Shown one piece after another: positions 29,433-40,505 of a DNA stretch of 40,505 nt. The stretch is taken from positions 1 through 40,505 of the forward strand of contig DAHXNH010000361.1 in NCBI GenBank assembly GCA_027365485.1, read 5' to 3'. Positions within the stretch are counted from its first letter, which is position 1, and every line of letters starts with the position of its first letter. The translations under genes and the position numbers were made by a program. Source of the stretch: Clostridiales bacterium. GTDB lineage: Bacteria > Bacillota > Sulfobacillia > Sulfobacillales > Sulfobacillaceae. The notes below the pieces were generated by a model. The model worked only from the letters and a program-made list of their open reading frames with translations. It did no database searches and was not told the origin of the DNA.

Positions 29433-29917
29433 GCAGGGCCAGAGCGGAGATGAAGAGGAATCCCAAGCCGCAATCCCCCTACCCGAACCGCCACCCTCTG
29501 ACCGTTCAATTGGGAAATCGCCCAGGCCGCCAAGGGCCTTTCGACGTTATTGGGTACGGCCAACATTTTCCTTAGATCTTGATCGATCCACGACCTCGCA
29601 GTTTTTGTGAGCGCTCGGTCTAAGGCGTCAGAAGTGGATGGCCCCAAAGCAATTCTGCGGCCATCCACTTCGAGGAAAACCCTTCGGTTCAATTGCCACA
29701 CCTGTTGTTGGACCATTGGATCCAGTTTCGCTTCGATGAGGTCAACGATTTGACGATGATGACGAGCTAGCACTTCCGCTTCAGCGTGATCCACTACCCG
29801 CCCCATTTCCGAGCGCGACACCCACACTCCAGATGACACCCCAATGAAGCCCAGAGCGATTACCAAGGCGGCTCCGCAAGCCGCTCCAGCCGCAAATTGT
29901 CCGAGTCGCCACACCAT
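29429..29917 (-). CDS. Unrecognised membrane-anchored protein
   Basis: A 162-residue protein with one N-terminal hydrophobic segment (about residues 8-33, Gly/Ala-rich then G-V-S-S-G-V-W-V) and a soluble domain predicted outside the membrane. The middle is charged and helical (H-A-E-A-E-V-L-A-R-H-H-R-Q-I-V-D-L-I-E-A-K-L), followed by a mixed alpha/beta tail that ends with G-Q-R-V-A-V-R-V-G-G-L-R-L-G-I-P. The ATG has GGAGG eight bases upstream. It lies between miaB and rpsB on the same strand. I do not recognise the family. Confidence 0.75.
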   Translation of the reverse strand: MVWRLGQFAAGAACGAALVIALGFIGVSSGVWVSRSEMGRVVDHAEAEVLARHHRQIVDLIEAKLDPMVQQQVWQLNRRVFLEVDGRRIALGPSTSDALDRALTKTARSWIDQDLRKMLAVPNNVERPLAAWAISQLNGQRVAVRVGGLRLGIPLHLRSGPA

Positions 29918-30086
29918 AATCTGAGCCTCCGGTTCAAAATCCGAACCTTGCCATTTTTCCCCAAATTCTCCGAATCACTCCTAGCCTATGCCCGTCATGA
30001 AGGTCCGAGTCCGCTCTGAGAAATGAAAAACCATCGAATAAAAGGTCATCGTCCCCGGCGCTGCAGTACGCTGATTCGCTGGCTGC

Positions 30087-31475
30087 CTACAGTAAAGGAA
30101 GCGCCTGCAGCCGACGTTTCGGCTGGTTCAAGGCTTTGCCTTTTACCGAACCGGTTAGGTAAAAGGTTTTGGCGCTTTCGATGCGCACGGGCACGAAACA
30201 GTCAGTCAGATCGATGTCCTTTTGCCGACCGAGCAGAACCACCTTGCCGGTTTGGGTGCGGCCAGCCCACACGTCGTCATTTTTCTTAGAGACGCCGTCC
30301 ACTAATACCAACAGATCTTTGCCAATCAAACGCCGATTCGCTTCCAAACTTATTTCATATTGCAGCGCCATCAACCGATTCAATCGGTCTTTCTTAACTG
30401 GATTGGCGACCGGGTCGCGACCCTCCCAACGCGCTGCGGGGGTCCCTTCACGTGGCGAATACACAAAGGTGAAGGCGGAGTCAAATCGAATCATTCTGAC
30501 TAATTCCAGAGTTTGTTCAAAATCCTCTTCGGTCTCCCCAGGGAACCCGACGATAATATCGGTAGTAAAACTGACATCAGCAATTTTCGATCGCGCTTTC
30601 GCAATGAGCTCCAAGTACTGCTCACGCGTATACTTTCGATTCATTCGCCGCAAAATAGCATTTGAACCAGCTTGCAACGGCAAGTGCAATTGGTGAGAAA
30701 TCTTTTCGCTGGAAGCAATAATCTCAATCAATCGGTCAGAAAAGTCACGGGGGTGCGGCGTCATATAATGGATCCAGCGAATGCCATCCACGGTCTCGGC
30801 CGCTTCCATCAAATCAGCCAAATCCACTCTGGGATCCAGGTCGTGACCGTAGGAATTGACATTTTGCCCAAGAAACATGATGTCTTCAAATCCTTGGTCG
30901 GCTAGGGCGCGAACTTCTCGCATCACATCGCTCAAGACTCGCGATCGTTCTCTTCCTCGAGTGAACGGCACAATGCAATACGTACAAAACTTGTCACAAC
31001 CGTAAATAATATTCACCTGCGCGCGAATACCCTCCTTGCGTCGCGAGGGCACGTGCTCGGCTAGGGTTTCGCCGGCGCTCTTCCACACTTCCACCAACAT
31101 CTCATCGCGCTCTTCAGCCTCTTCCAAAAGCCGCGGCAACTCATGCAAATTGTGGGTCCCAAATACTAGATCGACATGGGGGGCGTGCTTTTTTAGCCAG
31201 GCGATAGTTCCTGGTTCCTGCGCCATACAGCCAGCCACCGCCAATGTCATCGCCGGCCGTTCATCTTTCAACTGCTTTAAACGACCGACATGTCCAAAGG
31301 CATGATCTTCGGCGCCCGCGCGTACGGCACAGGTATTAATAATGATAAGATCGGCTTCGGCTTCGCTACCGGCGGCCCGATAACCCATGGTCTCTAATTG
31401 TCCGGCCATTATCTCCGAGTCTCGTTCATTCATTTGACAGCCCAAGGTGTGAATCAAGTACTGCGGTACCGCCAC
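30087..31475 (-). CDS. miaB: tRNA-2-methylthio-N6-dimethylallyladenosine synthase
   Basis: A 462-residue radical SAM methylthiotransferase that modifies adenosine 37 next to the anticodon. The N-terminal cluster cysteines appear in T-L-G-C-Q-M-N-E-R-D-S-E, N-T-C-A-V-R and V-A-G-C-M-A-Q. The radical SAM triplet is in G-C-D-K-F-C-T-Y-C-I-V-P-F-T-R-G. A TRAM domain ends the protein. GTG 31473-31475 is chosen because GGGAGGAGG lies seven bases upstream; the frame is open to 31610. A 9-base inverted repeat (CCTTTTACC / GGTAAAAGG, 30139-30166) lies inside its last codons. Confidence 0.95.
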   Translation of the reverse strand: MAVPQYLIHTLGCQMNERDSEIMAGQLETMGYRAAGSEAEADLIIINTCAVRAGAEDHAFGHVGRLKQLKDERPAMTLAVAGCMAQEPGTIAWLKKHAPHVDLVFGTHNLHELPRLLEEAEERDEMLVEVWKSAGETLAEHVPSRRKEGIRAQVNIIYGCDKFCTYCIVPFTRGRERSRVLSDVMREVRALADQGFEDIMFLGQNVNSYGHDLDPRVDLADLMEAAETVDGIRWIHYMTPHPRDFSDRLIEIIASSEKISHQLHLPLQAGSNAILRRMNRKYTREQYLELIAKARSKIADVSFTTDIIVGFPGETEEDFEQTLELVRMIRFDSAFTFVYSPREGTPAARWEGRDPVANPVKKDRLNRLMALQYEISLEANRRLIGKDLLVLVDGVSKKNDDVWAGRTQTGKVVLLGRQKDIDLTDCFVPVRIESAKTFYLTGSVKGKALNQPKRRLQALPLL

Positions 31476-31625
31476 CTGACTTCCTCCTCCCAGTTGCTTC
31501 TCCATCAATATCTCGTCCCCCAGCCGCGCCACCGCTGCCTCTTTTACCGCGTTTAGGCTATGGCTTCCTGCCTCGTCACCTTCATTGATTGTAGCACGCC
31601 CCGAATCCAACAGAGTTCGTGGGGG

Positions 31626-32477
31626 TTAGGCGCCCAAGGTTTTCGAACCATCCACGGGATATTCTCCCGAAACATGCTTCTTCCAATGCGCCAACGCCGA
31701 CGGCAAACTTTGCAATAACAACCAAGCTTGACTGCTTCCCGGGTCGTCGGCCAACGCCGCGCGCAGCTGCCGCCCGGCAAATGCTACCCGATGTCGACGA
31801 AGCGCCGCCCTGGCCAAATCGTAGTGCGGCTGCCACCAAGCCGGATCCGCCACTTCCGCCTGATGATAATACCGCGTGGCTAACGACCAATTGCCCTCCG
31901 CTTGCGCCATACTCCCCCAAATTTGCCAGGTCGGCGCCTCCGGGCCACCGGCTGCCATGGCGCGTTCCAACCAACGTGCCGCCTGAATATAGTGTTTAGA
32001 TGCCACATCGAGTTGGGCGAGACCATCCATGGCCGACCATCCACCCGGATTCAACTCTACGGCGCGCTGATAGGCCGATCGAGCCAGTGACGATCGGCCC
32101 AGGCTCGTCGCCAGTTTTCCTAAATTAGTCTCATACAGTGAAGTCTTGGGAGCGACTCGAACCGCGTCTTTTGCCGTCGTCAGCGCCGCCTCCGGCTCGC
32201 CCAGAGTCAAAAACAAGGTCGCCAACCGAGCGTACGCTGGGGCCCACGAAGGATCGTGGGCGATCGCCAATTCTTCGGCGGTCACAGCCGCCTGCACATT
32301 ACCTTGGACACTGCGATAGTGGGATTCGACGGCCTCTTGGTAGGCTCTGGCGATGGATCCGCCGCCACTATGGGGAGGAAGAAGGTACGCCCCGCTACCG
32401 CATCCAGTGACACCCAGCAACACCAAAACCAAGGTCGCGGTCCAACGGCCCTTAGCCTGCCTCACCGTCAAGCCCAT
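31626..32477 (-). CDS. TPR-repeat lipoprotein
   Basis: A 283-residue exported protein. A basic N-terminus and hydrophobic segment end in V-T-G-C, a good lipobox with the lipidated cysteine at residue 26. The rest is a tandem of tetratricopeptide repeats, for example A-I-A-H-D-P-S-W-A-P-A-Y-A-R-L-A, then A-V-E-L-N-P-G-G-W-S-A-M-D-G-L-A-Q-L. Such proteins act as scaffolds on the outer face of the membrane. The ATG has GGAG nine bases upstream and overlaps the Nudix gene by ten bases. The C-terminal 50 residues are less repeat-like. The partner is unknown. Confidence 0.85.
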   Translation of the reverse strand: MGLTVRQAKGRWTATLVLVLLGVTGCGSGAYLLPPHSGGGSIARAYQEAVESHYRSVQGNVQAAVTAEELAIAHDPSWAPAYARLATLFLTLGEPEAALTTAKDAVRVAPKTSLYETNLGKLATSLGRSSLARSAYQRAVELNPGGWSAMDGLAQLDVASKHYIQAARWLERAMAAGGPEAPTWQIWGSMAQAEGNWSLATRYYHQAEVADPAWWQPHYDLARAALRRHRVAFAGRQLRAALADDPGSSQAWLLLQSLPSALAHWKKHVSGEYPVDGSKTLGA

Positions 32478-32896
32478 GCCAAAAATCTCCGCACTCGAGA
32501 GTCCGTCAAGAGGCCAACCATCCCTTGGGCAAGATTAAGATCCTGACACTCGGACTCCGAAAAGTAGCCTAGAGTTTTCGCATCAGACAAAGCCTGGCCT
32601 GCTTTGGTCGAGTACACGTGTTCAATGCCAAAATCCAAAATCAGAATTCGCTCCGGCCCATTTTGCAACTCCGACACGTACAGCAAGGGACCCACTTCCA
32701 CCTCCAATGATGTCTCCTCCCAGACTTCGCGACAAAGAGCCTTTTCATATCCTTCTCCTGATTCCACATGGCCTCCTGGCACAGCCCAACGTCCACTCTC
32801 TGGAGCGTGTCCGCGTTGGATTAATAAGATCCTGTTGCCTACCCCCCGAATCACTGCCGCCACCGCAACATTAAGTTGCATCGACATCGTGCCCAT
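32468..32896 (-). CDS. Nudix hydrolase
   Basis: A 142-residue pyrophosphohydrolase of the Nudix fold. The box reads G-H-V-E-S-G-E, seven residues, then R-E-V-W-E-E-T-S-L: all acidic catalytic positions are present, with serine in place of the final glycine. P-G-G-H just before it is typical of MutT-like clean-up enzymes. The substrate is not predictable. Three closely spaced ATGs exist (32896, 32887, 32881) and none has a strong ribosome-binding site, which fits coupling to the overlapping upstream gene. Confidence 0.9.
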   Translation of the reverse strand: MGTMSMQLNVAVAAVIRGVGNRILLIQRGHAPESGRWAVPGGHVESGEGYEKALCREVWEETSLEVEVGPLLYVSELQNGPERILILDFGIEHVYSTKAGQALSDAKTLGYFSESECQDLNLAQGMVGLLTDSRVRRFLAWA

Positions 32897-33071
32897 CGTA
32901 AATGGTCAATTCATAGTCGTCCTCAAGCTGGCGCAAGCCAAAGATTAACCCGCGCTCCTTTAGAATTTGATTTAAGAACGTCACCACCTGATAGCCTGTA
33001 AACCCGGTAAAGCGACGCTGGCCCAACACCATCAGCTTGTCGTGGTCTGCAGCAATCTTAAACTCTTTCAT
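32871..33071 (-). CDS. YpmA/DUF4264-like small protein
   Basis: A 66-residue protein. The segment F-L-N-Q-I-L-K-E-R-G-L-I-F-G-L followed by an acidic turn and Y-E-L-T-I-Y resembles the short YpmA (DUF4264) proteins of Bacillota, whose function is unknown. The ATG at 33069-33071 is chosen by family length; the ribosome-binding site is weak and the frame is open to 33185. It overlaps the Nudix gene by 26 bases and is probably the first gene of the miaB cluster. The mutS gene often found near miaB is not present. Confidence 0.6.
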   Translation of the reverse strand: MKEFKIAADHDKLMVLGQRRFTGFTGYQVVTFLNQILKERGLIFGLRQLEDDYELTIYDGHDVDAT

Positions 33072-34119
33072 CTCATTGCGCGGGAATCCCCGGAATTCAT
33101 GCCGGGCAGGGATAGCGCGAGCAATCGAGCCTGCGCCGTTCCCGCTCCTCCTTTTTTCGGTGCTGTCTTTGTCCGCCAATACCAATGCCTATAGCCATCC
33201 GCTGCCGGGGTTCAGATTCCAAGCCCCGGTCTTCAAGCGGAACCCGCCGAGCTCGTGTTCAACTGCCCACCCCCAACCCATCTCGAGGCAAGGCGATGGT
33301 CTGCCCCAGGATAAGGATAGTCGAAGCCAACTGGCCAATAACGGGCCTTTCTAGGGGACTGGTGCGAAACCCGACAAATCGTCTTTCGAAGATCGCAACC
33401 ACGTCGATTTCAGGGTTCTCGATCCAGCCTTTTAGGACTGATGCACCAGGTCTCCGGGTTTCCATCGGCCAAATTCTCGCAGTGAACCATCCGATCGAGG
33501 TGGGTGTACCCACCGAGCCCCCATCGGGCAGAAGTCGAGAGATTCTACGGCACAAGCATTCACGGTCTCTTTCTCCCTCCACCGAGTGAGTGGTTTCTTC
33601 ATTTTAGCGCAACACCAAGACCGCCATCATTCTCGCCGACTTTCTCGTCGACGATGTCACGCTGTCTTTGGGATGACTGCCCAACCTCTTCATCCTTCAC
33701 CAAGCTGACACGCCACTCAGAAAACGGTCTTCCACGGCCTCACTCAGGGGAGTTTTAGGGCCTTTGGTCCGGCGTTTAGGCCCATTTACACCCACTCTAA
33801 GCGAGGATCTTGACACCCGACCTCTAGAGACTGTCTCTACTCGCTTGGCCTCCGAATGCGTTCGGCACTCCGCGGCTTTGCTGGGCTTGATGCTCACGTT
33901 CCCGGGTGCGAGACCGAGGACACGCCCCAGGTCGGGTTAAGCCAACGTTGGCCCAGGTATGCGCGTTCTGATTCCGTGCGCCCTGGTCTACCCGCAATGA
34001 AGCGCTTGGCAAAATTCTTCGTTCCAACCGAGGTGGTTGCCCGTTATTGCGCCCTAGGACTTTTCTTGCCTTGACTATTCACTACTTCTCCCATCATACA
34101 CCAAGCACGCGGCTGGGGC
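33072..34119. other. Gene-poor 1-kb interval left of the IS110 chimera
   Basis: No intact gene is seen. All six frames contain only short, overlapping stretches with unusual composition; the longest are 33185-33589 on the plus strand and 33259-33582 on the minus strand, and neither resembles a known family. The frame containing T-K-T-A-I-I-L-A-D-F-L-V-D-D-V (about 33610-33660) breaks at a stop. This looks like decayed mobile or coding DNA at the edge of the conserved block. Confidence 0.45.
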
Positions 34120-35646
34120 ATGCAACCGAGGCGGTCAGCCAAGGCCCCGTCAAAGTCTCGCAAACCCTTGTGTTTACGCCGTTTTTTAAGGGAGTGGACA
34201 TTTTTCGATCGATCTGTTAAAGTGAAGCTCTGTCAGCAAAATTACGGGTGGGGTGGAGCCACGGGCGCTCAGCGTCCGGACGAGCATCTCGCTCAGACGG
34301 AGGCGATTGTTCTTCCTGATCGATCTGGATACACTCAACTGGGCGGGGCCTTCCGGTCTCCGGACCGTCTCTCGACCCTGATTGATCCCCGTCATCAGCG
34401 AGGCATCCGTTTCCCCTTAGAGGAAATCCTGCTGTTGGCCCTAGCCGCTGTACTCGCTGGGAGGATCTCCGATGTCGCGATAAGCGACTGGATTCACGAC
34501 TTGAGTCCAGAACACCGCGAGCGCTTCGGGTGTCGACGCTGCAGACCGACCTTTACTGTCCCCAGTGAGGCGACCATCCGTCGGACCCTGCAAAGCCTAG
34601 ACGGCGATGCCGTGGACGCCGTCCTGCGTTGGATCCGAAGACAATCCGATAGCACGACGATCCTGATCGCCTACGAAGCCGGTCCCACCGGTTTCGGTCT
34701 CGCTCGTCTCTGTCAACGGGAAGGCATCGCCTGCGAGGTCATTGCCCCCGGGCTGGTTCCGGTCCGCCCGACGGATCGTGTCAAAACCGATCGCCGAGAC
34801 GCTCGCAAGTTGGTCGTCGATTTGCGTGCCGGCCAACTCACTCCGATTCATCTGCCCACGCCGATCGAGGAGGCCTTTCGCGATTTAGTCAGGACCCGAG
34901 AAGCGGTCGTTTACGACCGCCGTCGGGTACGCCAGCGGATGCAAAGCGCGTTGTTGCGGTGGGGCATTCGTCGGCCTGAGCGCTTCATCGCCTGGTCTCC
35001 CCGGTGGCGAACTTGGATACGCACCATTCATCCCGAGTCTGAATGGGCTCAGAGCGTGTGGGACGAGTTGCTCAGTCAACTCGAAGCACTCGATGCCCGG
35101 GTCACTCGCCTCGAGCGCTTAATCCAAACGGCCATGTCCACGCATCCTCACTCGTCCCTTTTGGTCGCTCTGCAAGCCCTGCGAGGGATTGATTGGATCA
35201 CCTCGGCGACTTTAGTCTCCGAGTTTGGCGGCTTCGCTCAATTTGCGCATCCGCGGGCGGTCATGAGTAGTGTCGGTCTGGTCCCGAGGGAGGCTTCCGG
35301 TGGTTCCAGTCGTCGCCAGGATCCCATTACGAAAACGGGCAATGCCCATGTGCGTCGGGTGTTAGTCGAAGCGGCCCATAGCTATCGCTATCCGCCCACG
35401 AAACAGGGGCGATCGGCCCAACGGGTGGGCAAAGCCCCCGTGGCCTGGCACCTGCCCCTACACACCATCGACTGGTGGGCTCAACAACGTTTACATGCCC
35501 GACTTCGGAGGCTGTCGGGAGCCCGAGGGAAAGCCCAGGCGGTGACCGCCGTGGCCCGGGAACTCTGCGGCTGTTGCTGGGAGATCGCCGTCTGGGTGCG
35601 AACCGAGACCCGCCGAGAGGAGGCGGTGCACGCTTCGACGTTGTAA
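34120..35646 (+). mobile_element. Chimeric transposase ORF: ISAs1-type N-domain fused to IS110 transposase
   Basis: A continuous 508-codon frame. Residues about 84-172 match the ISAs1 (H-repeat) transposase-associated N-terminal domain: L-I-D-P-R-H-Q-R-G-I-R-F-P-L, then L-A-L-A-A-V-L-A-G, and P-S-E-A-T-I-R-R-T-L-Q-S-L. From about residue 178 it is an IS110-family transposase: A-Y-E-A-G-P-T-G-F-G, D-R-V-K-T-D-R-R-D-A-R-K-L, and near the end L-R-G-I-D-W-I-T-S-A-T-L-V and I-T-K-T-G-N-A-H-V-R-R-V-L-V-E-A. IS110 proteins normally begin with a segment holding the first acidic residue of the DEDD set (G-I-D-V-type); that segment is absent. The ATG at 34120 is only the first in frame; the true start is unknown. 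Probably inactive. Confidence 0.85.
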
Positions 35647-36113
35647 AAATCTCCTCATCCGGCGTCTAGACGACTGGGTGGACGATGTAGACGGTGTGGT
35701 TCCGGCTCCAGGGAGAGTTCTCGTCTTTCCTATGCGTTAAAGATCTCCGGGTCTGAGCACGCGCCATCAGATTGAGATGGCTCCCTTCAGATCGCTAACT
35801 TGCAATTACGCTCTCGTGAGAGAGTCAGTCAAGCCCGCACACATGAGAATGATCCGCCGTCGCTATCGTGCCGTTTTGGGCACACTGTCTGCCTCGTCCA
35901 GCCAATCGCGTATCCCAGCTGGGGGGCCATCCAAGTATTGGGCATAGCCAGGGCCAGCCGCAAGGCTTCCCTAGCGGCGGCTCCGCCGGCCTACCCCCTG
36001 GCCCTGGCTATGCCCTTGAAAGGAATTGCCCCCCAAACTCGACAACTGGTCATCATATGAGGAATTAGCAGCCGTTGGTTAACCTGACAACATTGGAGAG
36101 CAAGCTACCTCGT
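35647..36113. other. Interval between the IS110 chimera and the permease gene
   Basis: Gene-free. It contains small palindromes (CGTCTAGACG at about 35664) and the large inverted repeat at 35940-36015. Part of it is presumably the IS110 right end; a clear boundary is not visible. The permease gene ends at 36114 and may use one arm of the repeat as its terminator. Confidence 0.4.
35940..36015. repeat. Perfect 18-bp inverted repeat with 40-base spacer
   Basis: GGGCATAGCCAGGGCCAG at 35940-35957 is repeated as its exact reverse complement at 35998-36015. The 40-base spacer contains its own CGGCGG-CT-CCGCCG hairpin. The whole unit can fold into one long stem with an internal stem-loop in either strand. 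It could be a small mobile element end, a terminator for the minus-strand permease gene or a transposon-derived structured element. Confidence 0.85.
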
Positions 36114-37958
36114 TCAGGAAGGCTCGGTACTGTCAGGCTGAGGCTCCTCCGCGAGATGCATTGGCACTGTGCCCAACACCACGTCTGTACGGCTGTGTAG
36201 GGCAGCCCCAACAGCCGCTCCAAGACGATTATGGAGCAAACTAGCAGGCAAATTGCCGGGAATAATTTCCGGAATTAATACTACGACGCGTTCATCAGCA
36301 CGCCGCTCCAGCGTGCCGATAAAGCGAAGAAGTGGGCGTACGACGGAATGGTATTGCGATTTTACTACGACTAATCGCACCGGTGGGGCCCATTTGTTCC
36401 ATGCGTCTTCAAAGCTTTTCGCACGCGCATCATCGTCTTCTCCTTCGAACAATACCACCACCGCAATCACGTGATCGCTCAACGAGAGCGCATGCGCCAA
36501 CGCCCGCCGGGTTAACGTTGATAGCACCGGAACAATGGGCACGACAACTAACGGCTTATGGAATGCAACCAGGGGGCTTGGAATCTCCCCTAAATGCAAA
36601 ATCTGCGCGACGCCGTCATAATAGCGATGGATTCTCCGGAAGAGAAATATCAAGACAGGAATGACCAAGATTACGATCCACGCGCCTTCGACAAATTTAG
36701 TGATAACAAACAACGTGGTCGCAATGCCCGTAAGCAGCGCACCTAGCAGATTTAATCCTGCCCGAGCCTTCCAAAATTTCGGCCGATTTTTTATCCAATG
36801 AATCACCATACCGGTCTGGGAAAGCGTAAATCCGGTAAACACCCCGATGGCAAACATCGGGATCAACGCCTGAGTATTACCATTGACCGCGATGAGCAGC
36901 ATGGCGGCTGCGATGGCGAGAACCCAGATACCTCTCTCAAATACGAGCCGGTCTCCCCGGGTTGCGAATCCCCTGGGTAGGTATCCGTCACGAGCCAGCA
37001 GGCTGGCCAACACCGGGAGTCCTCCAAATGAGGTATTAGCAGCCAATCCCAACACGACCATGATGTCGAGAGAGAGTACAAAGAATATCCAGCCGTGTCC
37101 GACGGACGCACTGATGATTTTACTTAAAAGCGTGACATGCCCACCTGGCAAAACCCCAAACTGAATGGTCAAAAGCGCGATACCAAGTAACATCGCGCCT
37201 AAAAAGGTACCTAGTAGCCATTCGGTCCGCCGGGCCCGCACCACCCGTGGTTCGCGAAACAGCGGAACCCCGTTAGCAATCGCTTCCACTCCCGTCAAAG
37301 CGGTCAATCCGGCCGCAAACGCCTTCGCCACAAAAAAGAGGCTTACAGGTGGGGACTGAGATGGAATCACCATCTTAGGGTGTATCGTGGGATGAATCAG
37401 CCCCCAGGCCAAAACGGCCAATAGGCCCACAACAAAGACCAGCGTGGGCAAAAGAAAGGCCCGCGCACTTTCTCCAACTCCACGAAGATTTAGTAGGGTG
37501 ACAATCGCGAGAACAAAGAGGCACAGCGGCAGGGTCAACGGCAAGAGACTAGGGAATGTAGAGGTTAGGGCCCCAATGCCGGCCGCAATCGAAATCGCGA
37601 CCGTCAAAATATAATCTACAATTAATGCTGCGCCGGCTAGTTGACTGCCAGCCACACCCAGATTTTCCCGGGATACAGCGTAGGCTCCACCCCCTTGAGG
37701 ATACACTTCAATCACTTGACTGTAGGACAACACTAAAATGGACAAGAGTCCAATAATCGCTAGCGAGACGGGTAGCAACAGGCGAATACCCGCCGCGCCG
37801 ACCCCCACCAAGACGATCGCGATGGCTTCAGGGCCATAGGCGACCGACGTTAATGCATCGAGCGAAAGAGCCGCCAACCCCTCGGATGTTCCGATTTCTT
37901 CCTTCGCCGCTTCCCCCGACTTCAGAGGACGCCCGACCAAAAATCTCCATATATCCAT
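36114..37958 (-). CDS. kimA: KimA/YdaO-like APC-family potassium permease
   Basis: A 614-residue membrane transporter, close to the length of Bacillus KimA (YdaO). The segment L-S-L-D-A-L-T-S-V-A-Y-G-P-E-A-I and the following 12 or so membrane helices fit the KimA branch of the APC superfamily. The soluble C-terminal part (about 440-600) resembles the cytosolic domain of KimA with P-L-V-V-V-P-I-V-P-V-L-S and a D-D-D-A-R-A motif. KimA imports K+ and is controlled by c-di-AMP in Bacillus. I found no recognisable c-di-AMP riboswitch upstream. Ordinary amino acid permease is the alternative. The ribosome-binding site is weak. It is flanked on both sides by insertion-sequence remnants. Confidence 0.8.
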   Translation of the reverse strand: MDIWRFLVGRPLKSGEAAKEEIGTSEGLAALSLDALTSVAYGPEAIAIVLVGVGAAGIRLLLPVSLAIIGLLSILVLSYSQVIEVYPQGGGAYAVSRENLGVAGSQLAGAALIVDYILTVAISIAAGIGALTSTFPSLLPLTLPLCLFVLAIVTLLNLRGVGESARAFLLPTLVFVVGLLAVLAWGLIHPTIHPKMVIPSQSPPVSLFFVAKAFAAGLTALTGVEAIANGVPLFREPRVVRARRTEWLLGTFLGAMLLGIALLTIQFGVLPGGHVTLLSKIISASVGHGWIFFVLSLDIMVVLGLAANTSFGGLPVLASLLARDGYLPRGFATRGDRLVFERGIWVLAIAAAMLLIAVNGNTQALIPMFAIGVFTGFTLSQTGMVIHWIKNRPKFWKARAGLNLLGALLTGIATTLFVITKFVEGAWIVILVIPVLIFLFRRIHRYYDGVAQILHLGEIPSPLVAFHKPLVVVPIVPVLSTLTRRALAHALSLSDHVIAVVVLFEGEDDDARAKSFEDAWNKWAPPVRLVVVKSQYHSVVRPLLRFIGTLERRADERVVVLIPEIIPGNLPASLLHNRLGAAVGAALHSRTDVVLGTVPMHLAEEPQPDSTEPS

Positions 37959-38955
37959 ATGTCATTGTCTCACATTTCGCACGCCTGGTTAGGGTTCCTG
38001 GGATAATTCGTCATCCTCGACGGAATCTGCCCTGAGCGACTCGAGAAGGGCACCAGCGAAGCCTTTTCTTCGCGCGGTGTTATGGCTAACTCCTTTTGTC
38101 CTTGGTTTGGCTAAGTCCGTGGTCATCAGTTCTAGCCTATTTCCGAGGATGTACCGGTGGCCTCGGAACTCCCCCAGGTGTCCTCACAGTATTCGCTGAT
38201 TAGCGTAGGCAGTGGGTTTTCTGGTGAGCTGTACAGCGAATACTGGTGGTACGTCAATCAGCGAATCCCAGCCCCTAGGGCTGATCTCGACTTTACGTCT
38301 GTCCCTGATCGGTTGTGTATCTGATGACACGAAAGTTAGCGGAAGTGATGACAAAACCAGTTAGCGCCAACACGCGGTTTTGGACTCGGTGAGTGTGCCA
38401 CCGCTGGTGGCACGATGAATGGTTCCAGTTTTTTCGCCGTTCCGGGGGGCCCGTGCCCATTCCGTGTTGTTGTATCCCAGGGACGAGGTTTAACGCCCAG
38501 GCCGAGAGTCCGATCGCTAGGAAAATCCCCACGCGACCCTGACGAAATGAAGCCCGCCACGTTTCGTAAACTCCTGAACAAGCCACGCACTGGACACGGG
38601 CTGAAGGAACTCCAGTAGAAACGGTCAACGAAATTGAGAGACGTTCTCGACCAAACCTATCGATAGAGGAGCCCACGACCATAGAGACCGCCTCAGCAGC
38701 GTGAACAGGCTCAATCGTTTGCGCCATCGCGATCGCGCAGCAAGCCCTTGAGGCGAATGGTCACGCGGTGTCAAGGCCGGCGAGCGGGCACCCTCCGAGC
38801 AGTTTGGCACCAGAACCTGTCCAAGCCATCGATGCCCCCAGGATCCCGACGAAACCCAGCGCCCGAGAGGCACGCTCTGCCTCGAGACGGGATTCAGTGC
38901 GCTCTGGCTCAGCCCTACCAGACACGACGTTTTCGAGGGGCAAGCCCCTCGCGAA
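37959..38955. other. 1-kb upstream region of the permease, gene-free
   Basis: No credible gene. On the minus strand the leader of the permease holds two neat hairpins: CACC-GC-GCGAAG pairing with CTTCGC-T-GGTG (38051-38079) and CCGAGG/CCTCGG (38141-38164). Further upstream lie the ATTCGCTG-type repeats (38187-38266). The part from 38300 to 38933 has only shadow frames. A 7-bp perfect hairpin (CGAGGGG/CCCCTCG, 38934-38951) follows the stop of the IS1634 relic. Confidence 0.4.
38187..38266. repeat. Inverted copies of a CAGTATTCGCTG motif upstream of the permease gene
   Basis: CAGTATTCGCTG at 38187-38198 recurs as its exact reverse complement at 38234-38245, and ATTCGCTGATT (38191-38201) recurs inverted at 38256-38266. 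Three copies of the core ATTCGCTG thus lie within 80 bases. They might be protein-binding sites for control of the permease, or the end of an insertion element. Confidence 0.6.
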
Positions 38956-39435: not shown

Positions 39436-40505
39436 ATGGCGTATTATCTTTCGCGCGAGGAGGCGCAAGCCATTATGACCAATTTGGCAACAAGGAATCC
39501 ATTCAGGCCATTAGTGTGGCTACGGGGCGGGATCCGAAGACCATTCGGAAGGTCGTGACGGACCCGACCCCACAGAGCACTCGACCTCGACGGGCTCGGG
39601 GCAGCAAACTGGATCCCTATGAACCGTATCTGGCCGAGCGATTGGATCAGGGGTGTCATAACGCCCAAGTACAGTGGGAAGAACTGCACCAGCGAGGATT
39701 TACCGGCAGCTTGAGTTTAGTGAAGCAGTATGTGGCGCTGCTGCGTTCGCAGCGGGGAGTGGAACCGACGCCCCGCTTTGAAACGACGCCAGGCGAGCAG
39801 GCGCAGTGTGATTGGGCGAACTTTGGCACATTGGTGTATCCAGACGGGCCGCGGAAACTGTATATCTTCGCCTACACAATGGGCTATTCGCGTCGGATGT
39901 ATATCGAGTTCGTCCATGATCAGCGCTAAGACACGTTGTTCCAGTGTTTGGAGCACGCGTTTGCCTGGTTCGGATGTGTCCCTACCCAGATCTTGTCGCA
40001 CAACATGACGCCGATGGTAGTCAGCCATCCGTATGATGGTGAGGTGGTGTGGAACCCCCGGTTTAAAGCTTTTGCGGACTTTCATGGGTTTCGTCCCAAA
40101 GCCGCCAAGCCCTATCGCGCCCGGACCAAGGGAAAGGTCGAACGGACGGTGTCCTATGTCCGCCAAAACTTTTGACCTCGCGTGCCCGACGCCATCACCC
40201 TCGCGGGCCTGAACAGCCTGGTCGCGCGCTGGACCGAAGAGCGCGACCAACGGATTCATGGCACCACCTTTGCGAAGCCGGCCGACCGGTGGGCGGCAGA
40301 TTCTGCTGGGGCGACCCCCTATGGCCTCAGCCACCTCTGGGCCTTTGGAGAACCCTGGGATCGGAAAGTCACCACCGATGCCTTCGTGCACTGGGAGGGC
40401 CACCGCTTCGCCATGCCGTGGGAGGCGGCTGGTCACCATGTGGAAGTGCGGCGCACTCCCTCAGGGATCGAAATTCAATGGGACCATCGGGTGGTCGCCA
40501 CCTAC
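39436..40505 (+). pseudogene. istA: Decayed IS21-family transposase istA, runs off window edge
   Basis: Beginning at ATG 39436 (M-A-Y-Y-L-S-R-E-E-A-Q-A-I) the frame shifts near 39474, apparently by loss of one T, to continue as Y-D-Q-F-G-N-K-E-S-I-Q-A-I and the helix-turn-helix A-T-G-R-D-P-K-T-I-R-K. The DDE domain starts at Q-C-D-W-A-N-F-G. A TAA at 39927 and a TGA at 40173 interrupt the same frame; the second replaces the tryptophan usual after N-F. The second catalytic motif, usually D-N-M or D-N-L, reads S-H-N-M, so its aspartate is lost. The glutamate in G-K-V-E-R remains. The istB helper would lie beyond the window. Confidence 0.88.

What the first reader, a model, noticed from the sequence alone, without database searches (positions are those of the whole stretch)
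34120..35646. In-frame chimera of an ISAs1 N-terminal domain and an IS110 transposase
Two unrelated transposase families are joined in one uninterrupted frame. The N-terminal half carries the ISAs1-associated domain, while its DDE catalytic domain is absent. The C-terminal half is IS110, lacking its first 50 or so residues including the first acidic position of the DEDD centre. The junction is near residues 171-178 (about 34630-34656). It could be a scar of an IS110 inserting into ISAs1 followed by deletion, or a retained fusion with a new role such as DNA binding. The long open frame argues for recent origin or some selection. The IS110 guide (bridge) RNA for many members comes from the left end, which is missing here.
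Basis: partly seen in the sequence, partly recalled or inferred. Interest (0 to 1): 0.75.

Follow-up and report, generated by a model that had tools for sequence, protein, structure and literature searches.

The report
Dead junction of two jumping genes
Two decayed bacterial jumping genes were joined by a deletion between ten matching bases, and the long reading frame this left shows no sign of selection and is already broken in the sister species, so it is an ordinary genomic scar.

Summary
The 508-codon frame is real. Residues 83-168 are an ISAs1 DDE_Tnp_1_assoc domain; residues 168-508 are an IS110-family transposase lacking about 40 N-terminal residues. The junction is at 34614-34623 (residues 165-168), a 10-bp microhomology (GGACGCCGTC) shared by an ISAs1 copy and a decayed IS110 copy in the same genome. 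Best explanation: a deletion between short direct repeats in two same-strand elements, in frame by chance. It is not a new protein. The ATG lies 20 bp outside ISAs1; residues 1-82 are ISAs1 5' DNA in the wrong frame because of a 1-bp deletion. The same junction exists base for base in a sister species at the same locus, so it is neither recent nor an assembly error. That copy has a TGA, a TAG and a further 1-bp deletion. Substitutions fall evenly over codon positions (IS110 part dN/dS 0.98; neighbouring genes 0.03-0.22). No other genome searched has it. One correction: this IS110 is IS1111-type, whose guide RNA normally comes from the right end, and that end is retained here. Interest is low. 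A conserved frame break in related DruA-ISAs1 elements, noticed in passing, is a better lead.

The parts
34120..34139 (+). chromosomal flank holding the fortuitous ATG of the 508-aa frame
   Evidence: homology to ISAs1 copies begins at about 34140 (34132 with C202)
34140..34365 (+). left end and 5' part of an ISAs1 element, read in a non-native frame; 1-bp deletion near 34363 relative to C227
   Evidence: alignment to C227 (L003); tblastn frame break 34316-34363 / 34363-34647
34366..34623 (+). ISAs1 DDE_Tnp_1_assoc domain in native frame
   Evidence: Pfam PF13808; 94.7% DNA identity to C227 over 34140-34623
34614..34623 (+). junction: 10-bp microhomology GGACGCCGTC shared by ISAs1 and IS110
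   Evidence: both parental-type copies (C227 and C365) hold these 10 bases; identical in the G001 ortholog
34624..35646 (+). IS110-family (IS1111-type) transposase lacking about 40 N-terminal residues; neutrally evolving
   Evidence: Pfam PF01548/PF02371; 53% aa identity to intact copy C80; dN/dS 0.98 and codon positions 8/8/7
35647..36059 (+). IS110 right non-coding end; conserved RNA-like block about 35700-35870, hairpin about 35940-36015; outer boundary approximate
36047..36056 (+). right sub-terminal inverted repeat TGGTCATCAT, complementary to ATGATGACCA at the left end of decayed copy C365

Best explanation
A dead composite scar. An ISAs1 element and an IS110-family (IS1111-type) element lay close together on the same strand. 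A deletion between two copies of the 10-bp sequence GGACGCCGTC (replication slippage or another short-homology event) removed the ISAs1 catalytic domain and right end together with the IS110 left end and first ~40 codons. The join happened to be in frame, so both halves stayed open. It happened before the two species split. Shown: both parental element types in the genome, the 10-bp overlap, the shared orthologous locus, the neutral substitution pattern, and lesions in the sister copy. Inferred: that the elements were neighbours rather than nested, and the slippage mechanism. The broader claim 'non-functional relic' I hold at about 0.95.
For: The 10-bp overlap is present in the ISAs1 copy C227 and in the decayed IS110 copy C365, whose left part reads YLGWDVH...SDAVLRWIRRQSD. 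The same junction lies in G001 at the syntenic locus, 96% over 8.7 kb. G001 carries TGA at residue 26, TAG at residue 44 and a 1-bp deletion near 34767; substitutions by codon position are 11/13/13; IS110-part dN/dS is 0.98 against 0.03-0.22 in four flanking genes, and the codon-position contrast gives Fisher p = 0.0007. The 1-bp deletion near 34363 is present in both species. Fusion found only in G000 and G001 among 42 genomes of the order and 61 genomes of the wider search; no relative in viral contigs. No ISAs1 3' remnant beyond the IS110 part.
Against: The frame is still fully open in G000. Only 27 substitutions fall in the native-frame part, so weak or lineage-specific selection cannot be excluded. 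The ISAs1 domain alone has 4 substitutions (2 synonymous, 2 not), too few to judge. The two G001 stops lie in the non-native residues 1-82. The parental copies are 93-95% relatives, not exact parents.
Confidence: 0.78

Rival explanations
1. The IS110 inserted inside the ISAs1 element, and deletions later removed the IS110 left end and the rest of ISAs1.
For: Same end product; ISAs1 and IS110 copies are common in this genome.
Against: No ISAs1 3' sequence follows the IS110 right end at 36056, so a second deletion would be needed; the junction is a 10-bp microhomology, not an IS110 terminus.
Confidence: 0.17
2. A domesticated fusion protein: the ISAs1-associated domain gives DNA binding and the IS110 RuvC/Tnp part gives RNA or DNA binding.
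For: The frame is open for 508 codons in G000.
Against: Neutral dN/dS, stops and a frameshift in the sister species, start codon outside the element, first catalytic Asp missing, no other occurrence.
Confidence: 0.03
3. An assembly or sequencing artefact joined two repeat families.
For: Draft assembly of 440 contigs with many IS fragments.
Against: The identical junction with identical flanks is in a separate assembly of another species at 96% identity; the shared word is only 10 bp.
Confidence: 0.01

Closest known systems
ISAs1 family (DDE transposase with PF13808 associated domain)
   Same: Left end and associated domain, 94.7% DNA identity to an ISAs1 copy in the same genome
   Different: No DDE domain, no right end, frame shifted upstream of the domain
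IS110 family, IS1111 group (DEDD transposase with right-end seekRNA/bridge RNA; PMC11187229, PMC11208160)
   Same: Transposase core, right non-coding end and right sub-terminal inverted repeat retained
   Different: Left end and first ~40 residues including the first catalytic Asp are missing

Membership tests
ISAs1 family (functional member) | DDE_Tnp_1_assoc domain | tested here: met
   PF13808, E 5e-17
ISAs1 family (functional member) | DDE catalytic domain | tested here: not met
   homology stops at 34623; no DDE_Tnp_1 hit
IS110 family (functional member) | complete DEDD RuvC-like domain | tested here: not met
   PF01548 matched only from profile position 30; GWDVH absent
IS110 family (functional member) | Transposase_20 (Tnp) domain | tested here: met
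   PF02371 at 351-421; IS621 matched at 320-419
IS1111 group | short left end, long right non-coding end | tested here: met
   relatives L056 and L057: left end ~105 nt, right end ~415 nt; homologous long right end in the window. The window's own left end is deleted.
IS1111 group | sub-terminal inverted repeats of 7-17 bp | tested here: met
   10 bp in relatives, TGTTAGCACC/GGTGCTAACA; window right copy TGGTCATCAT is complementary to ATGATGACCA at the left end of C365
IS1111 group | structured guide RNA in the right end | tested here: inconclusive
   strong sequence conservation at 35700-35870, weak covariation with 7 sequences, no Rfam match

The most novel reading that the evidence does not exclude
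The retained right end still makes an IS1111-type guide RNA that works in trans with an intact transposase of the same group elsewhere in the genome, so the scar would be a surviving RNA source although its protein is dead.
Probability: 0.03. Interest if true: 0.45.

Novelty: new member of a known kind. Interest (0 to 1): 0.13.

Why it matters
As a fusion protein it does not matter. It is a clean worked example of how a microhomology deletion between two insertion sequences can mimic a multi-domain gene, and a reminder that such frames need a sister genome and a codon-position test before a role is proposed.

Tried and rejected
Assembly artefact: rejected because the junction is orthologous in G001. 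Fusion elsewhere: none among 42 genomes of the order, the wider set of 61 genomes, genome contigs (only the JAMCVM010000232 record, a contig of the same length as G001:C54, covers both parts) or viral contigs. ISAs1 remnant to the right of IS110: none. I first read 35928-36028 as an insertion because L058 lacks it; other relatives have a hairpin at the same place, so it is native to the right end. Rfam: nothing. Structure prediction was not run: the neutral pattern already answers the question and a model could not show function.

Full report
The frame and its domains. The ORF 34120-35646 exists and is uninterrupted. Pfam places DDE_Tnp_1_assoc at residues 83-171, DEDD_Tnp_IS110 at 161-279 (profile start 30) and Transposase_20 at 351-421. 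IS621 and ISCro4 transposases are the only solved relatives found by sequence.

Where the halves come from. The window is contig C437 of a 4.9-Mb, 440-contig genome. The nearest named record by this locus is a Bacillota MAG (JAMCVM010000232); Sulfobacillus harzensis is among the relatives with related elements. An ISAs1 copy on C227 matches 34140-34623 at 94.7% DNA identity, and the match ends at 34623. Decayed IS110 copies on C365 and C193 match from 34614 onward. C365 reads upstream into the missing IS110 N-terminus (GWDVH..., then SDAVLRWIRRQSD), and C193 is similar. The ten bases 34614-34623, GGACGCCGTC, are common to the C227 ISAs1 and the C365 IS110. This is what a deletion between short direct repeats leaves. 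The mechanism itself is inferred.

The first 82 residues are not native protein. ISAs1 DNA begins at about 34140, so the ATG at 34120 is in the flank. A missing base near 34363 (CTCCGCGACC in C227, CTCCGGACC here) puts the native ISAs1 N-terminus (FMIDLDTLN...) in another frame. G001 also has CTCCGGACC, so this lesion is older than the species split.

Age and selection. G001, another species of the genus, holds the same junction at the same locus; 29442-38153 aligns at 96%. Its copy has TGA at residue 26, TAG at residue 44 and a 1-bp deletion near 34767 that shifts the rest of the IS110 frame. Between the two species, substitutions in the ORF fall 11/13/13 on codon positions 1/2/3. In the IS110 part dN/dS is 0.98. 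The four flanking genes give 0.03, 0.12, 0.16 and 0.22. The codon-position contrast with the flanking genes is significant (Fisher p = 0.0007). The frame therefore behaves as non-coding DNA. With about 2.4% divergence, one lineage still being open is unremarkable (inference).

Occurrence. Of 42 genomes of the order only G000 and G001 have both halves at one place. In the wider search the stronger IS110 matches begin at residue 163 or later and the ISAs1 matches end by about residue 189; one weak alignment that runs across (G039:C55, residues 82-282, 43%) lies in a DruA-ISAs1 element (L071) and is not an IS110 fusion. A few further weak matches that start between residues 124 and 151 were not examined one by one. 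Viral contigs gave none.

Right end of the IS110. In the relatives L056 (G028) and L057 (G006) the element is about 1,650 bp, with a left end of about 105 nt, a right end of about 415 nt and 10-bp sub-terminal inverted repeats TGTTAGCACC/GGTGCTAACA. These are the published marks of the IS1111 group, whose guide RNA is normally downstream of the transposase gene (PMC11187229; PMC11208160). The window keeps this right end: a conserved block at about 35700-35870, a hairpin at about 35940-36015 and TGGTCATCAT at 36047-36056, complementary to ATGATGACCA at the left end of the C365 copy. The consensus fold had only weak covariation, so a guide RNA here is plausible by position but not shown.

Verdict. 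A separate and more interesting lead, a conserved frame break in DruA-ISAs1 elements of related genomes, is listed under things noticed in passing.

Noticed in passing
L035, L036, L037, L039, L043, L054, L064, L067, L071, L076, L077 (other genomes of the class): ISAs1-type transposases, most with an N-terminal DruA-like extension (Pfam PF14236 confirmed in the two tested), whose DDE frame breaks at one conserved site. The downstream frame is +1 in 10 of 11, and the stretch expected to hold the catalytic Glu lies after the break. Across copies 53-91% identical, ATTTTTCCCCC is the only invariant run of 8 or more bases in about 780. Candidate programmed +1 frameshift or transcriptional slippage. 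Copies for one search were chosen by the motif, but, which searched without it, found it in 11 of 13 distinct copies; the own-genome copy C227 lacks it and reads through.
   Followed up: partly
window 35647-36059: Right end of an IS1111-type element with a block conserved across genera that is probably its guide RNA; no Rfam family matches.
   Followed up: partly
left ends in L014, L016, L027, L028, L031, L055, L057: The IS1111-type copies sit after a similar flank, AGATA(G/T)CATG, which may reflect their target site.
   Followed up: no
window 39516-39929: ORF that looks like part of an IS21-type IstA transposase and may be frame-broken near 39929 (judged by eye, no family search).
   Followed up: no
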